Source: a virus. Taken from it: 27,433 nucleotides of DNA. The stretch spans positions 1-27,433 of IMG/VR virus record IMGVR_UViG_3300007276_000236; one strand, written 5' to 3'. Positions 1,173 to 15,815 of the stretch are shown here, piece after piece. Every line of letters starts with the position of its first letter. Position 1 is the stretch's first letter. Below the pieces are notes generated by a model that saw only the letters and a list, made by a program, of their open reading frames with translations, had not been told where the DNA came from and made no database searches. The position numbers and the translations under genes were made by a program.

Positions 1173-2792
1173 ATGGCCGTTGTCCGATTACAGTCTTTTG
1201 GGGGGATCGCTCCCAGCATCCCGCCGCGCTACCTTAAACAGGAGCAGGCGCAGATCGCGATAAACTGTCCGGTCTTTACGGGCAGCATTCAGTCGTTGTC
1301 GGACGTTGGCACAACGCAACTCACACTGGACAAAGTAGGCACCCCCGCGACGATCTATCGTTTTGGGCAGGATACGATCTCGGACACCCAGTACTGGTTC
1401 CACTGGTTGACTGACGTTGATGTGGCCCGAAGCCAGATCGCAGGAGACACCTCCGAGTGGACGTTCTACACCGGAGACGGCGCGCCAAAGGCAACGAATT
1501 CTACCTTGGCATTGTCCGGCACGGACTACCCCGCAGCAGCGCGGCGTCTAGGACTGCCCGCTCCCACGTCGGCTCCCATCGCAACGGTAACAGGAACCCC
1601 TGATGCAACAGATACGCCCGAGACCAGAGTCTACACCTTCACATGGGTTAGTTCAGAGAGTGGTTTCGAGGTTGAGTCTGCGCCAAGTCCAGCTTCTATA
1701 TCGGTCGATGTCACAGGAACAGAAACGACTACAGTCGCGTCGTTCCCAACGGTCCCGACCGGGGACTACAACGTAACGCACAAACGAATTTACCGGTCGG
1801 TGAACGGGATTTACCTGTTCGTGGCCGAGATCACCGCCGCAACAACTTCGTACGTTGACTCGACTGCGGCAGACGCGCTGGGAGAAGAGCTTCCGTCGCT
1901 GTACTGGTCGCAGTCACCCGACGCGCTGACGGGCCTAATTAACATGCCTAACGGTATGATGGCCGGTTTCGTAGGGCGCGACGTGTACTTTGCAGAACCG
2001 TACCGGCCTCACGCATGGCCGGAAACGTACATCCAGACTGTGGACTACCCCGTCGTTGGCTTGGGCCGGATGGACACGACGCTCGCTGTTCTGACCACGG
2101 GTGTGCCGTACTTGATGATGGGTTCCAGCCCGCAGAATATCGCTGTGGTCAAGTCCGACCTCGAGCAGGCGTGCGTGTCCAAGAGAAGCATCGTGAGCTT
2201 TGGCAGCGCGGTCGTCTACGCGGCACCAGATGGGCTTATGCTGCTGTCACCGCAGGGGTCTCGGATCATTACGGAGAACCTGTTCAACTACAAACAATGG
2301 CAGACTTACTTCAAACCGGACTCGATCCACGCGTACCAGCACGACAACCAGTACATCGCGTTTTACAACAACGGCGTCACCTCTGGCGGTTTCATATACG
2401 ACATGACCAGCGGGCAGTTCATCCTCCACGACATCTACGCCACAGCAGGGTTCCGCGATCTCCAGCGCGACAAGCTGTTCCTCGCGTTTGCCGATCGCAC
2501 GGTTAAAGTCTGGTTCGACGGTGCGGCCAAGTCGTACACGTGGAAATCCAAGATGATGACCATGCCGCACACGATCAGCTTCACGTGCGCGCAGGTGGAG
2601 GCCGAAGCCTATCCGGTGACGTTTAAGATTTTCGCCGACGGTACGCTGTTCTACACGAAGACGGTTACTTCCCGTCGACCGTTCCGCCTGCCAGTTAAGG
2701 TTGGCCGAGACTGGGAGTTCCAGTTGGAGGGTTCCACAGAGGTATTTGCGGTGTCTGTGGCTACATCAATGACGGAGCTAGCGGGTGTCTAA
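1173..2792 (+). CDS. Conserved phage virion structural protein, probably tail
   Basis: The protein has 539 residues, with AAAGGA seven bases before its ATG. It is rich in beta-strand-forming, aromatic and Thr residues, with no membrane segment or signal peptide. The segment YWFHWLTDVDVARSQIAGDT followed by FYTGDGAPK (residues about 74-105) resembles a motif I remember from virion proteins of several tailed phages. Residues about 130-235 resemble an Ig/FN3-type beta domain ending before a SYVDST-like strand. The second half has repeated strand-turn units (DVYFAEPYRPHAWP, GVPYLMMGSSPQNIAVVKS, AAPDGLMLLSPQGSRIIT) that could form a propeller-like or nozzle-like body. It sits between the lysis cassette and the gpJ-like gene, overlapping the latter by 8 bases, which supports a tail role. 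The exact position in the virion is not readable from sequence. Confidence 0.6.
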   Translation: MAVVRLQSFGGIAPSIPPRYLKQEQAQIAINCPVFTGSIQSLSDVGTTQLTLDKVGTPATIYRFGQDTISDTQYWFHWLTDVDVARSQIAGDTSEWTFYTGDGAPKATNSTLALSGTDYPAAARRLGLPAPTSAPIATVTGTPDATDTPETRVYTFTWVSSESGFEVESAPSPASISVDVTGTETTTVASFPTVPTGDYNVTHKRIYRSVNGIYLFVAEITAATTSYVDSTAADALGEELPSLYWSQSPDALTGLINMPNGMMAGFVGRDVYFAEPYRPHAWPETYIQTVDYPVVGLGRMDTTLAVLTTGVPYLMMGSSPQNIAVVKSDLEQACVSKRSIVSFGSAVVYAAPDGLMLLSPQGSRIITENLFNYKQWQTYFKPDSIHAYQHDNQYIAFYNNGVTSGGFIYDMTSGQFILHDIYATAGFRDLQRDKLFLAFADRTVKVWFDGAAKSYTWKSKMMTMPHTISFTCAQVEAEAYPVTFKIFADGTLFYTKTVTSRRPFRLPVKVGRDWEFQLEGSTEVFAVSVATSMTELAGV

Positions 2793-4920
2793 GCTACCAA
2801 CCATCACCAGTACGATCCCGCAGGACTTGAGGTACTTCCTCGACCGTGTCCGCGAGTCGTTTAACTCCCTCAGCTCTGATCGGGTTGTGACTCTGGCTGA
2901 TCTGGAGAGGTACCGTCTCGTCGACATCGCTGGCGGGAACGTTATTCCCGTGCCCACCGAGAATGAGTACCCGACGCCACCAGCCCCTATAAACCTCGTG
3001 GCTACTGGCGCACTGGGTAACGTCATCCTGGAGTGGGACGCGCCTGTGTACAGCGGGCACGCATGGACCGAAATATGGGCGGCACCGGAACTAGGCGGCG
3101 GCGGTGCTCCACCGCTAGCGGACGCCGTGATGGTTGGCATGACCCCCGGCTCTGTGTTTTCGCACACTATCGGGGAGGGCACGTCCCGTTGGTATTGGGT
3201 GCGGTTTGTGAACCGAGAGAACGAACTCGGGCCGTACAACGCGGTAGACGGGGTTCAGGGGACCACAGGTCAAGACCCAGCGTACATACTGTCTCTGCTC
3301 TCAGGGCAGATCACCGAGGTTGAACTGTTCAGCAGTTTGGGCACGCGCATCAATTTGATCGACGGGCCGTCGAGCCTGACCGGCTCCGTGGCCCAACGCG
3401 TGGAGGCGGAAGCAACAATCCGCGCTGACGCTGACAGCGCTATTGTTAGCGATGTATCAACACTGCAGACCGCAGTTGGAACCAACGCATCCGCCATTCA
3501 GACGGAAGCAACGACCCGCGCGGACGCTGACAGCGCTATTGCTAGCGACATAGTAACGTTGCAGGCCACAACTGGAACCAACACATCCGCCATTCAGACG
3601 GAAGCAACGACCCGCGCTGACGCTGACAGCGCTATTGCTAGCGACATAGTAACGTTGCAGGCCACAGTCGGAACCAACACATCCGCCATTCAGACGGAAG
3701 CAACAACACGGGCCACCACCGACGGCGAGCTGCAAGCGCAGTACACTGTCAAAGTGGACGTCAACGGGTACGTGTCAGGCTACGGGCTTGCCAGCACGTT
3801 GGTTGGAGCGACTCCGACGAGCGAGTTTATTGTACGCTCTGATGTGTTTGCTATTGCGAACCCAGCTGGGCCGGGAATTGCGCCTTCTGAACCCTTTATC
3901 GTACGCACGACACCAACGACAATTAACGGGGTGAGTGTGCCCACGGGCGTGTACATGAAGGACACGTTCATCCAGAACGGTACTATCGCCAACGCGAAGA
4001 TCGGCAACTTGGCGGTCGACACCGCGAAGATCGCTGATTTGGCTGTCACCACGGCTAAGATCACAGACGCCAACATCACGACCGCTAAGATCACAGACGC
4101 CAACATCACGACGGCAAAGATCGCCAACCTGGCCGTTACCAACGCGAAGATAGGTCTTCTGGCGGTCAACACCGCAAACATTGTGGATGCCAACATCACG
4201 ACGGCGAAGATCGCCAACCTGGCCGTCACTACGGCTAAGATCGCAAACGCCAACATCACGACGGCGAAGATCGCAGACGCCAACATCACGACGGCAAAGA
4301 TCGCCAACCTGGCTGTGGACAGCGGTAAGATCGCCGACCTGTCGGTAGACCGTTTGAAGATCAACTCGGGCGGGCAGATCACGTCGTCTCTGGCGTCCGC
4401 CGGAAACATCTCGGTGCCCGTAACAGCGGGTAGCACCACAAACCCGTCGTATTCGTCAAGCGCCGGGCCTAACGAGGCCCACTTCCTAGCCAACCCAACG
4501 ATGTATCGGTCGCTAGGCACGCGTACATATGTTGTGGACGCGGACGATAACTATGCGCCAGAACAACTGGACGTGCTGTTAGGGACCGCACGAATTTCAG
4601 AGTTTAGCAACACTTCGGCGGCTAACACGTTGACCAGTCTAGTCTCCGGGTACTTTTACCGGGTACGCGCCGGTGGCGTGACCACGCGGTCGGACTATAG
4701 CTTTCTAGGTCAAAGCGACCACTACGGCGGCGCTATGATGTTCCTGCACTCGCACACCCCGATTATCCGCATTACCGCGCTGCTCAAGGGAACCCACTTC
4801 TCTGCGGGGCAAACGGTTACGTTCGAGCTGTATTACTACCGCTGGCGGAGCAACAGCAACTGGGGCGTCGGGAGTACTTTTTCCCAAATCCAGATAAACA
4901 TACGGGAGTTCTTCCGTTGA
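2785..4920 (+). CDS. gpJ-like tail tip / host-specificity protein with two repeat arrays
   Basis: The protein has 711 residues and a GTG start (2785) overlapping the previous stop, with GGAG upstream. Visible order: a short N-terminal region; an FN3-like domain (about residues 65-155, PPAPINLVATGALGNVILEW to WYWVRFVNREN); a linker with ILSLLSGQITEVEL; three 32-residue repeats (about 207-302, core EATTRADADSAIASD); and a segment resembling the region after the FN3 domains in lambda gpJ (about 310-400, LQAQYTVKVDVNGYVSGYGL). Then come twelve 10-residue repeats (404-523, consensus AKIADANITT) and a beta-rich C-terminal domain (about 524-711) that may contact the receptor. gpJ-type proteins sit at the tail tip and determine adsorption. 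Finding one in a probable podovirus is unusual. It could equally be a trimeric central fibre. Confidence 0.65.
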   Translation: MSKLPTITSTIPQDLRYFLDRVRESFNSLSSDRVVTLADLERYRLVDIAGGNVIPVPTENEYPTPPAPINLVATGALGNVILEWDAPVYSGHAWTEIWAAPELGGGGAPPLADAVMVGMTPGSVFSHTIGEGTSRWYWVRFVNRENELGPYNAVDGVQGTTGQDPAYILSLLSGQITEVELFSSLGTRINLIDGPSSLTGSVAQRVEAEATIRADADSAIVSDVSTLQTAVGTNASAIQTEATTRADADSAIASDIVTLQATTGTNTSAIQTEATTRADADSAIASDIVTLQATVGTNTSAIQTEATTRATTDGELQAQYTVKVDVNGYVSGYGLASTLVGATPTSEFIVRSDVFAIANPAGPGIAPSEPFIVRTTPTTINGVSVPTGVYMKDTFIQNGTIANAKIGNLAVDTAKIADLAVTTAKITDANITTAKITDANITTAKIANLAVTNAKIGLLAVNTANIVDANITTAKIANLAVTTAKIANANITTAKIADANITTAKIANLAVDSGKIADLSVDRLKINSGGQITSSLASAGNISVPVTAGSTTNPSYSSSAGPNEAHFLANPTMYRSLGTRTYVVDADDNYAPEQLDVLLGTARISEFSNTSAANTLTSLVSGYFYRVRAGGVTTRSDYSFLGQSDHYGGAMMFLHSHTPIIRITALLKGTHFSAGQTVTFELYYYRWRSNSNWGVGSTFSQIQINIREFFR
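3405..3692 (+). repeat. Three tandem 96-bp direct repeats in the gpJ-like gene
   Basis: Units begin near 3405, 3501 and 3597, each opening with a GCGGAAGCA- or ACGGAAGCA-type sequence; a fourth partial copy starts near 3693. Units 2 and 3 are almost identical at the DNA level, while unit 1 has diverged. Each unit encodes 32 residues with the core EATTRADADSAIASD and a following TLQAT.GTN.SAIQT strand. The exact multiple of three keeps the frame whatever the copy number. The near-identity of units 2 and 3 suggests recent duplication. Confidence 0.9.
3994..4353 (+). repeat. Twelve tandem 30-bp repeats encoding a 10-residue AKI..NITT motif
   Basis: Starting at GCGAAGATC (3994), a 30-bp unit repeats twelve times without interruption. 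Each unit encodes a variant of A-K-I-x-[DN]-[AL]-[NA]-[IV]-[TD]-T. The regular spacing of Ile and small residues fits a triple-beta-helix or beta-roll shaft of a fibre-like protein. Two unit types alternate irregularly (ADANITT and ANLAVTT), with one degenerate unit (ANIVDANITT). The frame is preserved throughout. Confidence 0.9.
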
Positions 4921-5447: not shown

Positions 5448-5876
5448 GTGACGCAGGCCAGACTCATATTCGATGACAAAGAACGTGTCGGCGCTTGGGT
5501 AGCGGAGCAAGTCGGACAGACTGCTCCTTGGGGCGGTTATTACGCCATGGGTGTCGAGATGAACGGTGAGATCACAGCGGGGTTTGTTTTTAACAACTTC
5601 AATGACTCCAACGCCACGTGCCACATCGCGGTCAGCCGTGGCAGTAAAGCGCTGTTTGACCTGTTCGACCACGCATACAACTACGTTTTCAACGTCTGTG
5701 GACTTCGCCGCCTGACTGGCATGGTGGACGCAGACAATGCAAAAGCTCTTCACTTGGATAAGAAGATCGGCTTCGTCGAAGAAGCTGTTTTGAAACAGGC
5801 CGGTACGGAGGGCGTCGACATGATCGTTCTTGTACTGTGGCCAGAGAATTACTTTAGGGGTGCCAAACATGGGTAA
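5448..5876 (+). CDS. GNAT-fold N-acetyltransferase (phage type)
   Basis: The protein has 142 residues and a GTG start preceded by GGGAGG. The C-terminal half carries RRLTGMVDADNAKAL and KKIGFVEEAVLKQ, then MIVLVLWPENYF: the beta4-alpha4-beta5 signature of GNAT enzymes (N-x-x-A-x-x-L...K-x-G-F-x-E-E). The pyrophosphate-binding loop (SRGSKALFDLF, residues 63-73) is a degenerate form of R-x-x-G-x-A, as in many phage GNAT proteins. It may transfer acetyl from acetyl-CoA to an unknown amine. It lies in the virion operon after a 90-base gap and overlaps the next gene by 8 bases, so late expression is likely. I infer a virion or host-modifying role; catalytic competence is uncertain because of the loop. 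Confidence 0.7.
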   Translation: MTQARLIFDDKERVGAWVAEQVGQTAPWGGYYAMGVEMNGEITAGFVFNNFNDSNATCHIAVSRGSKALFDLFDHAYNYVFNVCGLRRLTGMVDADNAKALHLDKKIGFVEEAVLKQAGTEGVDMIVLVLWPENYFRGAKHG

Positions 5877-6891
5877 GAAAAGCTCGAAAGCGCCAGACTA
5901 CGGCCCACTCGCCGAAGCGAGTAAAGAGGCCGCGCAGATCATGGCGGGCCTTGGTCAAGACCAGTTGGACTTTGCCAAGCAGCAGTACGACGAGATGTCT
6001 CCTATGCTGCAGGAGGTAGCCGGTCTCCAGATGGACGCGCAGCGCCAGCAAATGGATCAGGCCAAAGACTACTACGACTACCAGACCCAAACGTTCCGGC
6101 CCCTCGAGAAAAGCATCGTCGCCGACGCCGAGAACTTCAACACTGACGCGTACCGCGAGCAGCTGGCCTCACAGGCCGCAGCGGACTCCGGCTTGGCGTT
6201 TACCCAAACCCAGCGCCAGAACGAACGGGCAATGGCTTCTATGGGTGTTAACCCTAACTCTGGGCGGTTCGCCGGTATCCAGAGCGCCTCTGGTCTGCAA
6301 CAGGCCGCAAACCGTGCGGGCGCAATGACCAACACGCGCAACCAAGCTGAGCAGATGGGGTACGCCCGCAAGCTGGACGCCGCTGGCCTTGGTCGTAACC
6401 TCGCTGGGGCATCTCTCGCCGCCTATGGTGGAGCCACTGCCGCAGGTTCACAGGGCGCACAGACCGCGCAGTCGGCAGGTCAGAACTATATGGGCAACAT
6501 GGCTATCGGGTCTGGCACCATCGCGTCCGGTCAGAACATGCAGCTGTCTGGCTTGAGCACCGTTCTGAACAACCAGACGAACGCGTACGTCAACTCGAAC
6601 GACAGTTTCCTCGGCGACCTCGGCGGCATAATGGGCGGCGCAGCCTCTATGTACACCGCCTTTGGGTCAGACCGTCGCCTGAAAGAAAACATCGTAGAAG
6701 CAGGCGTCGACCAGCGCACGGCGTTGCAACTGTACGAGTTCAACTACATCGGCGAGCCAGATCGCAGGTTCCTTGGCGTCATGGCGGATGAAGTAGAGCT
6801 TTCCTACCCAGATGCAGTCACAGAACGCCCAGACGGTTACAAAGCCGTCTACTACGACATGCTCAACATCGAATTCAAGGAGGTCCACTAA
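5869..6891 (+). CDS. Putative internal virion protein with short C-terminal S74 (SDxxxK) domain
   Basis: The start is the ATG at 5869 (MGKKSSKAPDYG, AGGGG upstream), not the in-frame codon at 5830 inside the GNAT gene. The protein has 340 residues. Residues 1-230 are Gln/Ala-rich and helical, with motifs such as FAKQQYDEMSP and NPNSGRFAG, and a Gly/Ala-rich stretch follows (170-265). Residues 267-340 begin SDRRLKEN and continue LYEFNYIG, FLGVMADEVE, YPDAVTE and YKAVYYDML. This is the intramolecular chaperone S74 pattern, in which self-cleavage occurs before the Ser of SDxxxK. The usual long C-terminal helix is missing. S74 domains normally cap trimeric fibres, but the N-terminal part looks like phage stem or injection proteins. 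It lies directly upstream of the 513-aa and polyvalent proteins. Confidence 0.65.
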   Translation: MGKKSSKAPDYGPLAEASKEAAQIMAGLGQDQLDFAKQQYDEMSPMLQEVAGLQMDAQRQQMDQAKDYYDYQTQTFRPLEKSIVADAENFNTDAYREQLASQAAADSGLAFTQTQRQNERAMASMGVNPNSGRFAGIQSASGLQQAANRAGAMTNTRNQAEQMGYARKLDAAGLGRNLAGASLAAYGGATAAGSQGAQTAQSAGQNYMGNMAIGSGTIASGQNMQLSGLSTVLNNQTNAYVNSNDSFLGDLGGIMGGAASMYTAFGSDRRLKENIVEAGVDQRTALQLYEFNYIGEPDRRFLGVMADEVELSYPDAVTERPDGYKAVYYDMLNIEFKEVH

Positions 6892-8432
6892 TGGCGCGTC
6901 AGTCAAGGTGGCAGCAGTTCACTGACAACTTCAACGGTGTTTACAGCACTTTCAACGACGTCGGAAAAAAGATCGAGTCGGCGAATGTCGCGAAGCAGGA
7001 ATTCACGGACGAGGACGGCGTAGGTCTAACAGGCGACGCGCTTGACCGCGCTCGCAACTCTGCGCTTGCCGACATCTACACCAAGTACGGTGACGCCGAG
7101 GGCGGCTTGGCGCTACGGACGCAAGGTGCCGCACTGGAAGGTGTCGAGTTCGGGAACCGGCTGAACCGCAACACCGAAACGGACCAGACGTACCAGATGG
7201 GCCTTGGCGGCACTCGCAACCTCGACGCCCGCACAAACAGCGCCAACGCGTCGGCAGCTCAGGGATACGCTGGCGCGAACCGCACTAACACGTTGCTACC
7301 TGGCGAAGTCATAGGGCAAAACCTCGACAACGAGGGCACCGGACTTCTCAACCGAAGCCGCGCTGTTGACGCGGATGTAGCCGAGCAGACCCGTGCTGCC
7401 GTGGTTGCCGAAGCGGTGGCAGGCTCTAATACGGCTGTGCGCAACGACCAAGAGGGCGAAGCGACCAGTGACTCACGTGTTGCCACGACAAACGCTGCAA
7501 ACGAACTTGGAACCGCAACGTCCAATGCGGAGCTGATGATCCTTCCGGATGCGACACAGACCAAGCTGGCTGAACTGGCTGACAAGCTAGGCTCCGCTGA
7601 AACCAATATCGCAGACCGCGAAGCCAACGCGCGCGACAAAGGTGTTATGGAAGACATTCTGGACCGTTTGATGGAGCAGCCCGATTTCGAAAACGACGCG
7701 GCGGCTTCGGCGTGGATTATCGACGAGATCACCAACTCTGACATGACGCTTGGTGGCCAGAACTCTTTCGCGCAAGCTATCGGCGAACGCGGCGTTATGC
7801 AGCTCGGATCACAAGCAATGGCGCGCACGCAAAGCCTTGTAGAAGCGCGCACCGCTGGCGGTATCGACGCTATGGCCGACGCCTACGAGAAGTTCCAAGA
7901 TGGGGTAGACGGCAGGATTGTGCGAGACGGCAAAGGGAACGTGAGCGTCGTCATGTTCGACACCGAAACCGGTGAGGAAATGGCCACAATCGCGGAAGCT
8001 TCCGGCCCTGACGCTGAAGACATTATCGCCGAGCGACTGATGTCTTACGCAGGCGATCGCATCGGTATGATGCAGCTAGCTGCGGCAGAAGCAAGCCAAG
8101 CCGACCTTCGTGCGCAGACAAACCAACGCGTCGCGGATGCGCAGACAACAATCGCGGGCCTTGCGGGCCTTGGAAGAGACAGCGGTTTGGCCGACGACGT
8201 AGCGCTGGAAGGCGCGCGAAAGCTGTACGCGTTCATGAGTTCTCCGGATCAGATTATGCTGCTGGAACGTGAAACACTAGAAGACTCCGAACAGTGGGCA
8301 CGGCGGAACACACAAATGGCCCGTGCGATGTTCCCGCAAGCTGCGCCGCCTCCAGGCGTCGACGACCATATTGCGTGGTGGGACGCAAGCCCCGAAGAAA
8401 AAGAAGAAATGAAGAAACTGGCGAGCCAGTAA
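6891..8432 (+). CDS. Unrecognised 513-aa helical protein, candidate internal virion protein
   Basis: The ATG overlaps the previous stop (TAATG) and has a perfect AAGGAGGT seven bases upstream, the strongest ribosome site in the window. The protein is hydrophilic, rich in Ala, Asp, Glu and Gln, and mostly helical. Asn/Ala-rich stretches (about residues 100-130, and 190-240) look like coiled or flexible segments. I see no signal peptide, membrane helix or catalytic motif. Position between the S74 protein and the 2456-aa polyvalent protein, and matching composition, suggest the middle member of an ejected-protein trio (compare the gp14-gp15-gp16 order in T7). That analogy is from gene order only; I recognise no family. 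Confidence 0.55.
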   Translation: MARQSRWQQFTDNFNGVYSTFNDVGKKIESANVAKQEFTDEDGVGLTGDALDRARNSALADIYTKYGDAEGGLALRTQGAALEGVEFGNRLNRNTETDQTYQMGLGGTRNLDARTNSANASAAQGYAGANRTNTLLPGEVIGQNLDNEGTGLLNRSRAVDADVAEQTRAAVVAEAVAGSNTAVRNDQEGEATSDSRVATTNAANELGTATSNAELMILPDATQTKLAELADKLGSAETNIADREANARDKGVMEDILDRLMEQPDFENDAAASAWIIDEITNSDMTLGGQNSFAQAIGERGVMQLGSQAMARTQSLVEARTAGGIDAMADAYEKFQDGVDGRIVRDGKGNVSVVMFDTETGEEMATIAEASGPDAEDIIAERLMSYAGDRIGMMQLAAAEASQADLRAQTNQRVADAQTTIAGLAGLGRDSGLADDVALEGARKLYAFMSSPDQIMLLERETLEDSEQWARRNTQMARAMFPQAAPPPGVDDHIAWWDASPEEKEEMKKLASQ

Positions 8433-8444
8433 GGGAGACTACCC

Positions 8445-11400
8445 GTGGCCGAACTGACCCCGCTGGAAGAGCTGCAAAAACGTATCCGCGACCGCGCTCT
8501 CGGCGTTGCTGCGCCTGAGCGCCCTGCTGTAGCGCCTCCAGGACAGCAGTCTGACGAAGACTTCGAGGCCAGCCGTGCCGCCGAAGCCAAGAGCGGGCAG
8601 CTCCGCGACCTGCAAGCGTCTATTCGTGCGCGCCGTTTCCCTCCAACGGAAGCGAAGCCGGAAGAGATGGGCCTTACCGAAGCCGTAGGCAACGCGGTTG
8701 GGCGAAACGTCAACGCGTGGCAGAACGCGGCGGACACCGCGTCCGTTGAGGCCCAACAACGTGAGGCCAGAGTTAAAGAGGACCGCGCCGCGCGAGAAGC
8801 CTCAGGCGACCTTCCTTTGTGGGAGCGGCTTCTGTTTGCCCAAATTGGAGCAGCGGCAGCTGAAACTCCAGAGCAGTTGCGCGCCGAGTCCGGTGAGACA
8901 CTGCGCGGAATATCGGAGCGTAACGTCGAGACCGCTCGGGATTACCCAATGACGCAGGGCGCGCAAGACGCCCAGATGAACATCATGGAAGCCGCGTCTG
9001 AAGGCGGTTTTCGTGGCCTTGCTGCTGGTGTGGCTGAAGTCGTACGAAACCCTATTGGCTCCGCGTCGCTTTTTGGCCAAGTGGCCGCAGAGCAGCTTCC
9101 TACCGTTGCCGCTGCCGCTGCGATGCGTAACCCGCAGCTCGCAATGTCGGCGTTTACCATGTCTGGGTATTCGCAAGAACGCTTCGGGCAGTTGGCTGAA
9201 GAAGCGGCTAAGTTCGGGTACGATATCTCTGACCCAGAGCAGGCCCTCGCTGCTGCTAACGACGAAGAGCTTATGGCTCGGCAGGAGCAACGCGGTGCCA
9301 CACGAGGCTCGATCATTGCTGCTGTAGACCTTCTCACTCTGGGACTGGCGTCCAAAGCGCCGGTAAACGCCAGAGGATTAGCTACCCAAACAGGCGTCCA
9401 GATGGCAGGTGGTGGCGGTGGCGAAGCCCTCGCAGAGTTTGCTGACACCGGAACGTTTGATCCAGGCAATGTTATCCTGGAAGCAGGCGCTGAGGGTTTG
9501 GGCGCGTCCGCTGATGTCCTGGCTTTGGCTACTGGACGTAAACCACCAACTACTATGGACAACGTCGGTGGCGGTAGACCACCTGAACAGGGCACAACAC
9601 CCGACGCAGAACTCGCCCTTGAGGACGCCATGCTTGGCGCTCAACAGGAAGCCGAGGCGGCAGCAGAAGCCGCAGCTCAACAGCAAGCCGCAGTTGTGCA
9701 AGACCGCGCGGCCCGAGAGACCCGTCTGGACTACGCACCAACATTCACGTCCAACGCTGACTTTATCAAGCAGCGCGAGGCGCAGCTGCGTACCGACGTC
9801 ACAACACCTGGAACCGAAGCGGCGACGGCGTACCGTGAGTTCTTGGTTGAGCGGGAAATCCTGCCAACAAACGAGCAAGAAGTTGCAGCGGCGATAAACA
9901 CGTTCGTCAAAGAGACGAAGAAATCCGTGCCGCCAGAGCAGATGCAGGCCGAGTACCGTGCCGCGCTGGACGAGCACATCGCTGGCGTACAAGCACTGGA
10001 AGCTGCTGTTGGCGTGCCCCAAGAACCCCAAGCCTCCCCCGTCGCGCAAGCCGCCCCTGTCGCCGAGGCCGATGCACAGACAGCTCCGGTAGCCGAAGTC
10101 GACGCGACCGTTGAGCCTGCTGCCACTGTCGAAGCGGCCACTGTCGCCCCCGCGCCGCAGGTAGATGCGGTAGCAGTCGCCAAGCAACTGGTGGAGAACA
10201 CAGGGATAATCCTTGACGACGTTCGCGCCAAGAACCTTGAAGCGGACATCAACGCGATCGAGGCGCTGCCAGTGGAGGAGCGCGCAACTGCTGTGCGCGC
10301 CGTGCTCAGCGCATACACGTCTCCACAGGTTGCTAAGACGGCGTCTACTGCGCCTAAAGTACGCGAGTACACCGCAGAGACCCCGACCCGGGGCCGCGAC
10401 GACGCGAAGAACAAAGCCGATGCGCTCTTGCCAGAAGGCTGGATCGAAAGCGCTGACACACGGTTCGAGGACGTCCAAGGCGCTGTCAACGCCACGAGTT
10501 TCTCCAAGCCCAAGTTCGACCAAGCCATGGCGAAAGCTCTGGCGGAGCCACAAACCGAGGTAGCCGTGCAGGCGCAGGAGGAACTGCTGGCCGGAACCGA
10601 GGTTGTTACCGTACCAACGCCAAAAGGTCTTACCAAGACACAGAAAAGCGTATGGGACGTTGTTAGAGAAGCGTTCCTGAACAGCGGACAGGACACCGTA
10701 ATCCAGCCGGATGGTTCGTGGAACTTCACTAAAATTCAAGAGTTGGCGGGGCTGAAGTCACGTCAAGCGGCGCAGCAGGCCCTCAAGCAGTTGCAGCCAA
10801 AGATCGCAAAAACGTACAACCTGTCCGCCGAAGGGGTTAAGACCCAGCTTTCCAAGACTGCCGAGTCCCGTCGCAGCGCGCAGCCCGCCGAGAAGTTGAA
10901 CGACGCCACCGAGGTGTTCGACAAAGCCGAGTTGGCGTCCAACATGGGGACCGTTGCGTCGGTTAACCAAGGCGCTAAGACTGGCGTGGACGCGGAAGAT
11001 GCGGCGTTTACAGCGGCCCGTTCCGAAGAGCCTAACGTCGTTGCCGAGAAGCGCGCGGCGGAAGCTATACAGACCCGAAAAGAAATCGTGGCCGACACCA
11101 TTAAGCGTTCTGGCCAAGCGGCCATTAAAGCTTGGGCAAACATGCGGGCCGAAGGTGGTCCTAAGTTCGCCAGTCTGAGTGTACAGGACCAGACGGACTG
11201 GGTTCTCGCCGTCGACGAAAACCTATCAGGCTACTCTGACGACGCTACGTTGGACGCCGACCAGCGCGAGATTGCCAGCCGGTACGACGCAGCCGTTGAT
11301 CCAACCGAGGAGATTACCAATGAAAGCAACACAGACGGAGAAGCGCAAAGCTCGGAAACGCCTAAACGACGCGTCGAAAAAGCTGGTCCAACTCCAGAAG

Positions 11401-14400
11401 AAGGGCGAACCGCTGAGCCGGATCGAGCAGCGCGTAGTGGACCGGATGGAGGCAGGGCGCAAGCCATAGTCGAAGACGCCGAAGTAGTTTCCGAAACGCC
11501 AGCAGCTCCAAAAGAAGCAGCTAGCGTGGCCGTCGAACCAGCAGGCGTCGAAGGCGAAGTAGTAGGGCCAGAGCCAGACAGGGGCGTTCGCGGCGCTGCC
11601 AAGCCGCCAACTGTCGAGGTCAAAAAGAAAAAGAAGATCGTTGCGCCGCCAGCGCCGAAGTTTTCTGTTGGGGAAATTGAAGCCTCAATGGAGGGCACCG
11701 ACGCAGGTGTTGTAGCTGGTAATGTTCGACAGGCGCTAGGCTGGCTCATCGGTAAGGACTCCGATTGGCGCGTTACCGTGGTGCGGAACCCCAACGACAT
11801 GATCGGTATGGTCATGGCAGGTGAAGTCGACATCGACTCCTCGCAGCTGGGTGACATCTTGGACGCGAAATCCCCGTTTGGCGTTGTGGTTAAAACCCGC
11901 AGCGGTGTCACGCGTGCGTTCTTCTTTGCTGAAAACATTGCCCCTGGGACAGAGCACGCCGTCGTCATGCACGAAGTCGGCAGTCACATTGGTATGGACG
12001 CGATCCTGACGAAGGAGCAGAAGAACGCGGCGGTCAAGCAGATACAAGACTGGTCTGTCATGGATGGCAACTCGCTCGAGAAGCGCATCGCCGAGAAGGC
12101 CGTGCGCCGCGTGAACCTAGCCGTGGACCGAGACGCTATTGGCGGCGATACGGTAACAGAAATCGTTGACAACCTGCAGGCCGAGTACATCGCGTACTTC
12201 TTGGAGGAAGCTGTTCTCCACGGTGTCACGCCAACTAGCGACAACGCATCAGCGGTGCGGGACTTCGTTCGTGGGTTGTGGGCTGACTTTAAGCGCGCGT
12301 TGCGTAAGCTGCGGCCCGCCAACATTGACGCTATGACTGCGCAGGACTTTGTAAACATGGCTCGCGGTGCGGCGCGCCTCGAACTCGGCACACGGGCACA
12401 CGGCGGCACGCACGACTTCCGTGTTGCGGACCCACGGTTCTTCGGGTTGGGGAACAACGCAAACGGCATAGGTTTCTACGTCTCCGAGGAGCACAACCTA
12501 GCATACGACTATATGACCAAGCGAGCCAAAGAGCGCGGGGTGGAGGAAGGAACTCTGCTACGCGTGGACGTAACGGTCGACGACGCGGATATGATGGTCT
12601 GGGGGGATACTCTGGAGAACCAGCCGATCGCCCTCGCCGCATTCGAAGCAATGACGCCAGAGTTGCAGGATAGCGTCCTGCGTGAAAATCGGGTGACGAC
12701 GCCGCAGGAGATGACCGGACGCCAGTTCTACACGGGCGTCGCTGCTGCGCAAATCCGCAATCAACTGGTGGAGAATTACATTAGCCAAGCGGACTACGAC
12801 CGCGCCGTTAAGTTCGAGCGCGGTAACGCGAAGGCCATGTCTATGGCGTCGTCGCTCCTGAACGACCTAGGGGTTAAGGGTATCCGGACTGCGGTGTCCA
12901 ACCCTACAACCTTGGCAAACCCGACGTTCAACAACATCATTTTTGATGCCGACAACGTGGTCATCGTAGGGCGTAACGACGAGTCGGATACAACTGCCCA
13001 GACTACCCGCAGCGGCACAACACGTTTCGGCGTCAATGAGTCGTCAAAGCAGGAAGCCCGCGAGTTCCGCGACTGGACCGGGGATAATCTCGGGACCACA
13101 GCACAGCGCGTGGTGGATGACACTAAGGCTATCTGGGACGCCGGAATTGACGCATTGAAGCCTATTTCGCTATTCATCCGCGACCACGCCAAGACGTTGC
13201 CTGCGCTTAACGACTGGTACAATGGCGCGCTTGCCGCCAAACAGACGCGCCGTGCGTACACTAACGTGGTGGACGAGATCGCCAACCGCGCCAGAGCGCT
13301 GGCACCAGAGCGTCTAGCATTGGTGAACAACTTCCTGTCCACGTCGACGTTCTTCCAGAAGTGGGGCTACGACCCGCAGATCGACAATAAGACCGTGAAG
13401 ATCGACCCGATCATGAAGAAAAAGTTCGACCGGCTGACTGCCCAAGAGCAGCGCATCGTTAAGGACATCTTCAATCAGGGGGAGGTGCTGCGCGCCGACA
13501 TGAACCAGATCGCCAAAGACATGGGGATTGGTAAGACGTTTGTGCTGAACAGCAAGTTAGATGGGCCGTACGCACCGCTCAAGCGCTTTGGCGACAAGGT
13601 CGTTATTCTCAAGTCGCAGGCTCTGGTGGATGCTGAAAAAGCGGCAAGCGCCAACAGTGCTGACGGCAACACCAAGAAGGTAGACGAGCTGAAGTCTGAT
13701 CCTAAGCACTATGTCGTGCAGTTCTTCGACACGCAGGGTTCCGCCAACCAGTTCCGTGACGCCAACAAGGGGAGCTTCGCGTACGCATCGTCGTCCGACA
13801 AAGCACCTGACACTACGTCGCGCCTCCAGAACAGCACCACGGTTTACCAGAAGGTTCTCGCGGCGATCAACGCAGAAGACTCGTCTGCCCTGCCGACCAA
13901 GAGCAAGCAGGCAGCGAAAAAGCTTGTTGAAGACTTGCTATTCCGGTCGCTCGACGAGCGCAGCGCCCGCCTGTCTGGCGCACGCCGGATGAATATCGCT
14001 GGCTACGATCAGAACATGATCCGGTCGTTCGTGTCGCACGGTCGTTCGCAGGCTAGCCTTATCGCGCAGATGAAGCACGGCGGCGAGATCAATGGTGCGT
14101 TGGTGAACGCGCAGAAACAGGTATCAAGCGCCAAAGATAGCGACCGTGGCGACCTCCAGCGTGCGTACAACGTCATTGCCGAAAAGAACTCGGACCTCAT
14201 GACACCACGTTCAGGGTTCCTTGCCGAGCTTGAGAACCAAGTGCTGGCGTTCAACACCACGATGATGCTCTCCACCAGTCTTGGGTACCACGTCACTAAC
14301 CGCTTACAGCCGATCTACTCTGTGGCCAAAATTGCCAGTGACTTCGGCAAGTACCCCGCCGTGTGGGCCGCGCTGTTCAACGGCAACAAAGTCGCGCGCT

Positions 14401-15815
14401 CCGTGATCGACACCAGCTTTATGCGCCAAGTCGGTACCGTCGTAAGCATGGGCTTCGTCGACATGAACAACAAGGTCACCGTGGACACCAGCAAGGCCGA
14501 CCCAAAGTACCGTGGGCTTCTTGAGGAGATGCAGCTCCGCGACCTGCTAGATGTGGGTATGGAAGAGGACCTGAACCTGGATAACCGCAAGGACTCAGGG
14601 TACAAAACCATCAACAAACTAAAAGAGAAGTACGCGGACCTCACGCACCGGCTGTACCAGACAGCGCGCTATGTGGAGGCCAGCAACCGCGTGTCGTCCG
14701 CCGTCGCAGCGTTCGATATGGCACAGAAAAGCCCTGCCATGCTCAAGAAGCTGGAGATGACTGCCCAGCAGTACGCCATCAACGTAGTGCAGGATACCCA
14801 AGGTGACTTCTCTGCTGAAGAGACGTCGTTGTTGTTCTCCAAGCTGCCGCGCGTAACGACGCAGTTCCGCAAGTACCAGATCATGATGGGCTTCCTGCAC
14901 GCGCGTGCGCTCAAGCAATCGTTTGACCCACGGATGCAGCCATGGGAGCGCGCCGCCGCTAAGCGCCTGACTGGATACCTTCTGGCTACAACTGGCACAC
15001 TGGCCGGTACCATTGGTCTGCCCGCCGCAGGTATCGCTTTCGACGTATTCATGATGGCCTTCGGCGACGAGGACGAGCCAGAAGACCTCGAGCGCACCAT
15101 CCGCGACAACATCGACGATCCGCAGATCGCTACGCTGGTTGCGCGGGGCCTGCCCGCTATGCTGGGAGTCGACATGTCCACAAAGATGTCAATGAACGAC
15201 ATTTTCCAAGCGTGGGACAGCCGGTACGCCGCGCCGAGTACGGACCGCGATGGCATGTTGGCGTTTATCGCGCAGCTCGGCCTAGGCCCAACTGCAGGCA
15301 ACATAGGGTCGCTGGTTAACTCTGCTGCGTTTATGCAAGAAGGTAACATCCCAAGAGCGGTCGAAGCCGCGCTACCAAAGGGCGGACGGACACTGATGGA
15401 AAGCTGGCGTCTGTCCAACGACGGGTTCACCACGCGTCGCGGTGACGTCGTAGCGCCGCCAGAGGAATTCAACCTGTTCGATCTGGCGACAAACATGGCC
15501 GGTATCCCGTCGTCCGACGTGGCGAACCTGAAGTGGACGTACTACCAGCAGATCGAAATCGACCGTTGGTTTAGCGACCGCCAGTCGCAGATACGCACAG
15601 ACTATTTGCGGGCGTACGACGACAACGACAGAGCTGGCATGAATGAAGCCATTGACCGCTTCCGTGGTTTACAGGATGGTAAGGATAACGTCCGACCGTT
15701 CTACAACGGGGATCGCACCGCGCTCCGCCGGACACCGACAAGTAGCCTTAGAAGTGCTGTGCGAGACCGACGCAAAGAAGAGCGTCAGCTACAGACTAGG
15801 GCCGGAACGAGATAG
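8445..15815 (+). CDS. Large polyvalent virion protein: metallopeptidase-like, ADP-ribosyltransferase-like and LPD38-like regions
   Basis: The GTG start has AGGGAG seven bases upstream; the product has 2456 residues. The N-terminal 360 residues are Ala/Gly-rich with weakly hydrophobic helices (about 185-225). A Pro/Ala/Val linker follows (about 523-585, repeats of APVAEAD type), and charged regions continue to a Lys cluster near 1060. Residue 1176 starts HEVGSHIGM, a zincin-like motif. Residues 1318-1510 (GGTHDFRV, GIGFYVSEEHNLAYDY, LLNDLGVKGIR, NIIFD) resemble ADP-ribosyltransferase-like domains of phage polyvalent proteins. Residues about 2060-2360 (HRLYQTARYVEASNR, KLPRVTTQFRKYQIMMG, a hydrophobic stretch at 2176-2205) match the LPD38-type domain. 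Such proteins are packaged and ejected with the DNA. It is the last late gene before the terminator. Activities are inferred; no lytic transglycosylase or RNA polymerase motif was found. Confidence 0.7.
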   Translation: MAELTPLEELQKRIRDRALGVAAPERPAVAPPGQQSDEDFEASRAAEAKSGQLRDLQASIRARRFPPTEAKPEEMGLTEAVGNAVGRNVNAWQNAADTASVEAQQREARVKEDRAAREASGDLPLWERLLFAQIGAAAAETPEQLRAESGETLRGISERNVETARDYPMTQGAQDAQMNIMEAASEGGFRGLAAGVAEVVRNPIGSASLFGQVAAEQLPTVAAAAAMRNPQLAMSAFTMSGYSQERFGQLAEEAAKFGYDISDPEQALAAANDEELMARQEQRGATRGSIIAAVDLLTLGLASKAPVNARGLATQTGVQMAGGGGGEALAEFADTGTFDPGNVILEAGAEGLGASADVLALATGRKPPTTMDNVGGGRPPEQGTTPDAELALEDAMLGAQQEAEAAAEAAAQQQAAVVQDRAARETRLDYAPTFTSNADFIKQREAQLRTDVTTPGTEAATAYREFLVEREILPTNEQEVAAAINTFVKETKKSVPPEQMQAEYRAALDEHIAGVQALEAAVGVPQEPQASPVAQAAPVAEADAQTAPVAEVDATVEPAATVEAATVAPAPQVDAVAVAKQLVENTGIILDDVRAKNLEADINAIEALPVEERATAVRAVLSAYTSPQVAKTASTAPKVREYTAETPTRGRDDAKNKADALLPEGWIESADTRFEDVQGAVNATSFSKPKFDQAMAKALAEPQTEVAVQAQEELLAGTEVVTVPTPKGLTKTQKSVWDVVREAFLNSGQDTVIQPDGSWNFTKIQELAGLKSRQAAQQALKQLQPKIAKTYNLSAEGVKTQLSKTAESRRSAQPAEKLNDATEVFDKAELASNMGTVASVNQGAKTGVDAEDAAFTAARSEEPNVVAEKRAAEAIQTRKEIVADTIKRSGQAAIKAWANMRAEGGPKFASLSVQDQTDWVLAVDENLSGYSDDATLDADQREIASRYDAAVDPTEEITNESNTDGEAQSSETPKRRVEKAGPTPEEGRTAEPDRAARSGPDGGRAQAIVEDAEVVSETPAAPKEAASVAVEPAGVEGEVVGPEPDRGVRGAAKPPTVEVKKKKKIVAPPAPKFSVGEIEASMEGTDAGVVAGNVRQALGWLIGKDSDWRVTVVRNPNDMIGMVMAGEVDIDSSQLGDILDAKSPFGVVVKTRSGVTRAFFFAENIAPGTEHAVVMHEVGSHIGMDAILTKEQKNAAVKQIQDWSVMDGNSLEKRIAEKAVRRVNLAVDRDAIGGDTVTEIVDNLQAEYIAYFLEEAVLHGVTPTSDNASAVRDFVRGLWADFKRALRKLRPANIDAMTAQDFVNMARGAARLELGTRAHGGTHDFRVADPRFFGLGNNANGIGFYVSEEHNLAYDYMTKRAKERGVEEGTLLRVDVTVDDADMMVWGDTLENQPIALAAFEAMTPELQDSVLRENRVTTPQEMTGRQFYTGVAAAQIRNQLVENYISQADYDRAVKFERGNAKAMSMASSLLNDLGVKGIRTAVSNPTTLANPTFNNIIFDADNVVIVGRNDESDTTAQTTRSGTTRFGVNESSKQEAREFRDWTGDNLGTTAQRVVDDTKAIWDAGIDALKPISLFIRDHAKTLPALNDWYNGALAAKQTRRAYTNVVDEIANRARALAPERLALVNNFLSTSTFFQKWGYDPQIDNKTVKIDPIMKKKFDRLTAQEQRIVKDIFNQGEVLRADMNQIAKDMGIGKTFVLNSKLDGPYAPLKRFGDKVVILKSQALVDAEKAASANSADGNTKKVDELKSDPKHYVVQFFDTQGSANQFRDANKGSFAYASSSDKAPDTTSRLQNSTTVYQKVLAAINAEDSSALPTKSKQAAKKLVEDLLFRSLDERSARLSGARRMNIAGYDQNMIRSFVSHGRSQASLIAQMKHGGEINGALVNAQKQVSSAKDSDRGDLQRAYNVIAEKNSDLMTPRSGFLAELENQVLAFNTTMMLSTSLGYHVTNRLQPIYSVAKIASDFGKYPAVWAALFNGNKVARSVIDTSFMRQVGTVVSMGFVDMNNKVTVDTSKADPKYRGLLEEMQLRDLLDVGMEEDLNLDNRKDSGYKTINKLKEKYADLTHRLYQTARYVEASNRVSSAVAAFDMAQKSPAMLKKLEMTAQQYAINVVQDTQGDFSAEETSLLFSKLPRVTTQFRKYQIMMGFLHARALKQSFDPRMQPWERAAAKRLTGYLLATTGTLAGTIGLPAAGIAFDVFMMAFGDEDEPEDLERTIRDNIDDPQIATLVARGLPAMLGVDMSTKMSMNDIFQAWDSRYAAPSTDRDGMLAFIAQLGLGPTAGNIGSLVNSAAFMQEGNIPRAVEAALPKGGRTLMESWRLSNDGFTTRRGDVVAPPEEFNLFDLATNMAGIPSSDVANLKWTYYQQIEIDRWFSDRQSQIRTDYLRAYDDNDRAGMNEAIDRFRGLQDGKDNVRPFYNGDRTALRRTPTSSLRSAVRDRRKEERQLQTRAGTR

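What the first reader, a model, noticed from the sequence alone, without database searches (positions are those of the whole stretch)
8445..15815. 2456-aa polyvalent protein combining protease-like, ADP-ribosyltransferase-like and LPD38-like regions
One late gene takes over a quarter of the window and appears to carry at least two effector-type enzymatic regions plus an LPD38-type C-terminus. Known large polyvalent proteins are injected with phage DNA and modify the host early. This arrangement, beside an S74 protein and a GNAT protein, may be a complete ejected host-takeover set.
Basis: partly seen in the sequence, partly recalled or inferred. Interest (0 to 1): 0.7.

Follow-up and report, generated by a model that had tools for sequence, protein, structure and literature searches.

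The report
Phage polyvalent protein: protease plus ADP-ribosyltransferase
A short-tailed phage carries one giant late protein that very likely travels inside the virus particle and combines a metalloprotease, an ADP-ribosyltransferase-like effector and a large helical tail module; it is a new member of the known 'polyvalent protein' class, and the effector sits in a slot that relatives fill differently or leave empty.

Summary
The 2456-aa ORF is real and at the stated coordinates. Residues 1157-1312 are a zincin-like metallopeptidase with the HEXXXH motif (H1176, E1177, H1181, with E1247; invariant in 45 of 45 aligned relatives). Residues 1312-1529 are a divergent ART-PolyVal-type ADP-ribosyltransferase (H1319, Y1345; third catalytic residue uncertain). 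Residues ~1543-2456 are the PLxRFG/DarB-like C-terminal module (NF032893, 176 bits, cut-off 100), predicted confidently as an all-helical fold with no solved relative. 'LPD38' is not supported. A homologous DarB-like protein is present in virions of phage JC1, and the upstream genes are the conserved late cassette of Bcep22/PEp14-like podophages, so 'virion-borne polyvalent effector' is supported by homology. 'Complete ejected takeover set' is not: the acetyltransferase was not found in JC1 virions, and S74 is a virion-protein domain. The methylase and helicase of DarB-like proteins are absent. New here: the ART occupies a fixed slot between protease and C-terminal module (11-residue junction in 50 of 50) that relatives fill with canonical ART-PolyVal, MuF_C, LPD23-containing or unknown sequence, or leave empty, including the window's nearest relative.

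The parts
8445..15815 (+). 2456-aa polyvalent virion-type protein
   Evidence: ORF and translation; single match in own record; relatives
8445..11711 (+). N-terminal ~1090 aa: mostly A/E/P/Q/T-rich, with conserved patches at aa ~37-380, ~421-515 and ~723-1075; no known domain
   Evidence: no Pfam or PHROG hit in the window or in seven relatives, except a weak ART-PolyVal match in L049 just before its protease; patches from blastp
11712..12380 (+). zincin-like metallopeptidase (MPTase) domain, aa ~1090-1312
   Evidence: profile of relatives; AF2 blocks mostly pLDDT 84-97 up to about aa 1280; hhalign to Parlo DarB-like protein prob 96%, E 2.5e-9
11970..11987 (+). HEVGSH motif (HEXXXH), aa 1176-1181
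   Evidence: H, E, G, H invariant in 45 of 45
12183..12185 (+). E1247, candidate third zinc ligand in E-x2-A-Y-x2-E-E
   Evidence: E1247, E1254, E1255 invariant in 45 of 45
12378..13031 (+). ADP-ribosyltransferase-like domain, aa 1312-1529, in the variable slot
   Evidence: iterative HMM, Pfam ART-PolyVal in relatives, AF2 and Foldseek
12399..12401 (+). H1319, strand-1 histidine of the H-Y-D type ART active site
   Evidence: H in 49 of 50 ART members
12477..12479 (+). Y1345, tyrosine of the G-x-G-x-Y motif
   Evidence: Y in 51 of 54 aligned segments
12945..12953 (+). D1501-A1502-D1503, strand-5 acidic position; most relatives have D at the A1502 column
   Evidence: column 1502: D 22, E 2, A 1 (window)
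13071..15812 (+). C-terminal PLxRFG/DarB-like helical module, aa 1543-2456
   Evidence: NF032893 176 bits; phrog_10089 E 1.6e-30; hhalign to POI1126 prob 100%; AF2 mean pLDDT 85.7, pTM 0.83, no PDB fold match
13575..13592 (+). PLKRFG motif, aa 1711-1716
   Evidence: Y1709, R1714 and G1716 are invariant in 59 aligned relatives
11658..11666 (+). KFS, aa 1072-1074: recurrent linker motif before the MPTase
   Evidence: [KRQ][FY][SG] in 35 of 67 relatives' pre-MPTase linkers against 4.7 expected
13023..13031 (+). RFG, aa 1527-1529: same motif just after the ART
   Evidence: slot-region enrichment 87 against 36
1173..2792 (+). internal virion protein, phrog_511
   Evidence: E 1.9e-153; 169 phage records with a match
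5448..5876 (+). GNAT-type acetyltransferase, phrog_4470
   Evidence: conserved position
5830..6891 (+). Peptidase_S74 virion protein
   Evidence: conserved position
6891..8432 (+). 513-aa protein directly upstream, positional counterpart of JC1 gp68 / Bcep22 gp74
   Evidence: homologues in L005, L007, L018, L024, L027, L030; no sequence hit in cultured phages

Best explanation
It is a virion-borne polyvalent effector protein of a Bcep22/PEp14-type podophage lineage known here only from metagenomes. The C-terminal helical PLxRFG module (aa ~1543-2456) packages or anchors the protein in the particle and accompanies ejection (inferred). The HEXXXH metallopeptidase next to it cuts the chain at linkers, before or after entry (inferred). 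That frees the ADP-ribosyltransferase domain, which modifies one or more host macromolecules early in infection (inferred). Shown here: the gene, the three modules, invariant protease residues, ART family membership with H and Y retained, conserved late-gene context, and variable content of the slot that holds the ART.
For: ORF and domains. MPTase residues invariant in 45 of 45. ART family. AF2 models. Foldseek: ART-PolyVal-like phage proteins; the one PDB hit below E 0.001 is a chain of the cyanophage A4 pre-ejectosome, E 1.3e-4. C-terminal homology to DarB-like proteins, prob 100%. JC1 gp69 in virions (PMC9144972). Synteny. Polyvalent MPTases, including a HEXXXH set, H-Y-D ARTs and the processing model are described by Iyer et al. 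2017 (PMC5512222).
Against: No direct virion data for this phage. Pfam ART-PolyVal does not score the window's ART, and the family's commonest strand-5 acid is alanine here (flanked by D1501 and D1503), so the ART could be weakened or inactive. The A4 hit has a low TM-score (0.26), and the aligned region was not shown. Autoproteolysis has not been shown for any member examined here. N4 vRNAP, which has an MPTase, is packaged uncut according to Iyer 2017.
Confidence: 0.72

Rival explanations
1. It is mainly a structural or ejectosome protein: the C-terminal module builds the internal core or trans-envelope conduit, and the protease and ART are minor or decaying passengers.
For: The helical C-terminus is the conserved part. 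The A4 pre-ejectosome chain is the only PDB hit below E 0.001. ART is absent in many relatives, including the window's sister L017. The window's ART departs from the family at one acidic column.
Against: Protease residues are invariant in 45 of 45. ART H and Y are conserved across 50 divergent members, which is not the pattern of decay. When ART is missing, other effector-type domains can take its place.
Confidence: 0.15
2. It is a DarB-type antirestriction protein that protects entering DNA from type I restriction.
For: The C-terminus matches PHROG 10089 DarB-like antirestriction, E 1.6e-30, and annotated DarB-like proteins.
Against: No methylase or SNF2 helicase domain in the window protein, while POI1126 has both. 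The DarB annotation of Bcep22-like phages itself rests on similarity.
Confidence: 0.06
3. The protease itself is the effector against host proteins and ADP-ribosylation is incidental.
For: The MPTase residues are invariant; Iyer et al. list host-directed cleavage as an alternative.
Against: Retrieval was by the MPTase motif, so its universality is partly built in. Slot content varies next to an unvarying protease, which fits a processing role better.
Confidence: 0.12

Closest known systems
DarB-like / PLxRFG virion proteins of Bcep22-like podophages (JC1 gp69, POI1126 gp30, Parlo gp81, PEp14 gp27)
   Same: Homologous C-terminal ~850 aa (hhalign 5.9e-79 to POI1126), homologous MPTase before it in Parlo and POI1126, same late-gene neighbours
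   Different: The window protein is about half to two-thirds as long and lacks the cell-wall hydrolase, InPase, methylase and SNF2 parts seen in POI1126; it has HEXXXH where POI1126 and Parlo have HEAFH; it carries an ART
Polyvalent proteins with zincin MPTase and ART (Iyer et al. 2017, PMC5512222)
   Same: MPTase plus H-Y-type ART in one large phage protein; an HEXXXH set is already described there
   Different: The specific MPTase-slot-PLxRFG order with a fixed junction and interchangeable slot is not spelled out in the passages read
Escherichia phage N4 virion RNA polymerase (gp50)
   Same: Giant ejected protein with a zincin-motif domain followed by a large helical domain without known structural relatives (PMC12633501)
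   Different: No significant profile match of either region to the window family; no RNA polymerase in the window protein
Phage T4 Alt
   Same: Virion-injected ADP-ribosyltransferase is the functional model (PMC5512222)
   Different: Alt is of the R-S-E clade, not the H-Y-D clade, and is not fused to an MPTase or PLxRFG module (general knowledge)
Vibrio phage douglas 12A4 VPAG_00062 (3026 aa)
   Same: C-terminal module E 9e-124 and a HELITH (HEXXXH) motif, in a cultured phage
   Different: No ART match; the MPTase profile match is weak (E 0.004)

Membership tests
Phage-type polyvalent proteins | one large polypeptide with several biochemically different domains, in the late/structural gene region | tested here: met
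   MPTase, ART and PLxRFG module in one ORF beside virion genes
Phage-type polyvalent proteins | packaged in the virion and delivered to the host | not testable with these tools
   only by homology to JC1 gp69 (PMC9144972)
Polyvalent zincin MPTase, HEXXXH clade | HEXXXH plus downstream glutamate in a helix | tested here: met
   invariant H1176/E1177/H1181/E1247; both in helices of the AF2 model
Zincin superfamily | structural match of the fold to a solved zincin | tested here: inconclusive
   no clear solved zincin among the significant PDB hits of the two-domain model; the domain was not searched alone
ART-PolyVal (PF18760) | Pfam gathering-level match | tested here: not met
   no match in the window; sub-threshold matches in relatives
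ART superfamily, H-Y-D polyvalent clade | H in strand 1, Y in strand 2, D in strand 5 | tested here: inconclusive
   H1319 and Y1345 conserved; strand-5 column is A1502 flanked by D1501 and D1503
PLxRFG / tail-700 (NF032893) | score above the curated cut-off of 100 bits | tested here: met
   176 bits, aa 1757-2408; PLKRFG at 1711-1716
LPD38 (PF18857) | Pfam match in the C-terminus | tested here: not met
   the control rang nowhere, so true absence is not proven
DarB antirestriction protein | adenine methylase plus SF2 helicase | tested here: not met
   no such domain in P0001, present in POI1126 gp30

The most novel reading that the evidence does not exclude
The metallopeptidase and the PLxRFG module form a constant delivery chassis with an interchangeable effector slot. 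Effectors (ART, canonical ART-PolyVal, MuF_C, unknown domains) come and go at one exact junction, and short [KRQ]-[FY]-[SG] motifs in the linkers on either side are the sites where the protease releases the cargo. This would make these phage proteins natural protein-delivery cartridges.
Probability: 0.3. Interest if true: 0.65.

Novelty: new member of a known kind. Interest (0 to 1): 0.42.

Why it matters
It shows a compact form of the giant DarB-like virion protein in which the antirestriction part is absent but the protease, C-terminal module and one effector are present. That helps separate delivery parts from cargo. The fixed junction with changing cargo makes two open questions testable: which part targets these giant proteins into the particle, and whether polyvalent metallopeptidases cut at defined sites. 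The ~900-aa C-terminal fold is predicted with confidence and has no solved relative in the PDB library searched.

Tried and rejected
LPD38 by Pfam and by family search: no match. DarB antirestriction function: methylase and helicase absent. Homology to N4 vRNAP C-terminal domains: hhalign not significant. Sequence match to solved structures: chance-like matches only; the match to lysozyme 5i8l is three repeats of 7.5-9.5 bits each and was not followed. Bacterial genome scan for prophage copies with two peptide patterns: none confirmed; plasmids: one PLxRFG protein in Chromobacterium. The [KRQ][FY][SG] motif as specific to HEXXXH-MPTase proteins: not specific, since it is also enriched in DarB-like proteins with HEXXH or no such motif, so it may be a general inter-domain element, or the first strand of the domain (AF2 puts KFSV in a short strand). 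RNA families and tRNAs in the window: none.

Full report
WHAT IS THERE. The window is a 27,433-base virus record. ORF 8445-15815 (+, GTG, 2456 aa) is open throughout and is found unchanged in a second IMG/VR contig of 18.2 kb. Upstream on the same strand are an internal virion protein (phrog_511, E 1.9e-153), a J-like/tail-tip fibre protein, a tail assembly chaperone, a GNAT acetyltransferase (phrog_4470), an S74 virion protein and a 513-aa unknown. Downstream, on the minus strand, is a replication block: DUF927 protein, SNF2 helicase, PD-(D/E)XK nuclease, family A polymerase.

DOMAINS. (1) aa 1-1090: A/E/P/Q/T-rich with three conserved patches and no known domain. (2) aa ~1090-1312: metallopeptidase. 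HEVGSH is of the HEXXXH form, and H1176, E1177, H1181, G1183, E1247, A1250, Y1251, E1254 and E1255 are invariant in 45 aligned sequences. Iyer et al. 2017 describe a HEXXXH set among polyvalent MPTases and propose processing of the polypeptide (PMC5512222). (3) aa 1312-1529: ART. In relatives the same stretch reads HGTAA..F..F....GEGAQAYGWGTYLA; Pfam ART-PolyVal matches 7 of 9 aligned members below threshold (best E 2.5e-4). Three relatives have gathering-level ART-PolyVal in the same slot. H1319 and Y1345 are conserved; the strand-5 acid is not certain (A1502 where 22 of 25 have D, with D1501 and D1503 beside it). (4) aa ~1543-2456: PLxRFG module (NF032893 176 bits; phrog_10089 E 1.6e-30), homologous to the end of POI1126 gp30 (hhalign prob 100%, 5.9e-79).

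STRUCTURE. AF2 of aa 1068-1560 with 45 sequences: mean pLDDT 77.5, MPTase and ART core blocks mostly 80-97. Foldseek: many phage polyvalent and ART-PolyVal-like models. The only PDB hit below 0.001 is 9k3a_B, cyanophage A4 pre-ejectosome, E 1.3e-4; its TM-score is low and the aligned part was not shown. AF2 of aa 1543-2456 with 59 sequences: mean pLDDT 85.7, pTM 0.83, nearly all helical; no PDB match better than E 0.49. N4 vRNAP also has a zincin-motif domain followed by a large helical domain with no structural relatives (PMC12633501), but profile comparison gave no support for homology, so that is likeness of layout only.

THE SLOT. A motif scan of viral contigs gave 80 loci with the MPTase, plus 13 loci from the C-terminal scan, with overlaps. 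Of 89 MPTase ORFs, 79 also contain the C-terminal module in the same ORF; some of the others are cut by locus ends. ART was found in 50. The distance between MPTase end and C-terminal start is about 185-242 aa when no extra domain is present and 380-940 when filled. Non-ART fillings include canonical ART-PolyVal (L036, L040, L083), MuF_C (L043, L095), an LPD23-containing stretch (L078) and unassigned sequence (L003/L007). The ART joins the protease at a constant spacing of 11 residues in 50 of 50. On a tree of the C-terminal module the ART/no-ART state changes at least 13 times by starred branches, and the window's sister L017 (51% identity) has an empty slot. A tree of the MPTase alone also pairs window with L017 and needs 12 changes, 6 of them forced by starred branches. 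Gain and loss cannot be told apart; the exact junction suggests an old fusion with repeated loss or replacement. These numbers come from a motif-selected, partly redundant set and are not population frequencies.

DELIVERY. No virion data exist for this phage. By homology: JC1 gp69 (DarB-like, 4515 aa) was detected in CsCl-purified virions with 51 unique peptides, as were its neighbours gp68 (510 aa, directly upstream) and gp64 (directly after the acetyltransferase); the acetyltransferase gp63 is not in the list (PMC9144972). The same order GNAT, S74/virion protein, virion protein, giant protein is seen in POI1126 and, with small differences, in Parlo and Atu_ph08 and in several uncultivated relatives.

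LINKER MOTIF. In the ~55 aa before the MPTase, [KRQ][FY][SG] occurs in 35 of 67 relatives against 4.7 expected from shuffled linkers; in the slot region 87 against 36. Over whole proteins the excess is smaller and partly due to PLxRFG itself, and DarB-like proteins show it too. In the window, KFS (1072-1074) precedes the MPTase and RFG (1527-1529) follows the ART. A processing site is one reading; a structural strand is another.

VERDICT. New member of a known kind, with a tidy modular variation worth testing.

Noticed in passing
window 11658-11666 and 13023-13031; relatives L017-L095: Short [KRQ][FY][SG] motif recurs in low-complexity linkers next to the MPTase and slot (35 of 67 against 4.7 expected).
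   Followed up: partly
window 3404-3727 and 3991-4346: Tandem-like repeats (96-nt and 30-nt spacing) inside the J-like fibre gene.
   Followed up: no
L100:15961-25041 (Vibrio phage douglas 12A4 VPAG_00062): Unannotated 3026-aa protein has the PLxRFG C-terminal module (E 9e-124) and a HELITH motif; a cultured system for tests.
   Followed up: partly
L049:2326-6210: A relative with an empty slot has a weak ART-PolyVal match just before the MPTase (E 2.8e-4), so the ART may also sit N-terminally.
   Followed up: no
L022: One relative has two MPTase domains in the same ORF.
   Followed up: no
window 1-27433: AT skew flips sign at about 15.8 kb, where the coding strand changes.
   Followed up: no
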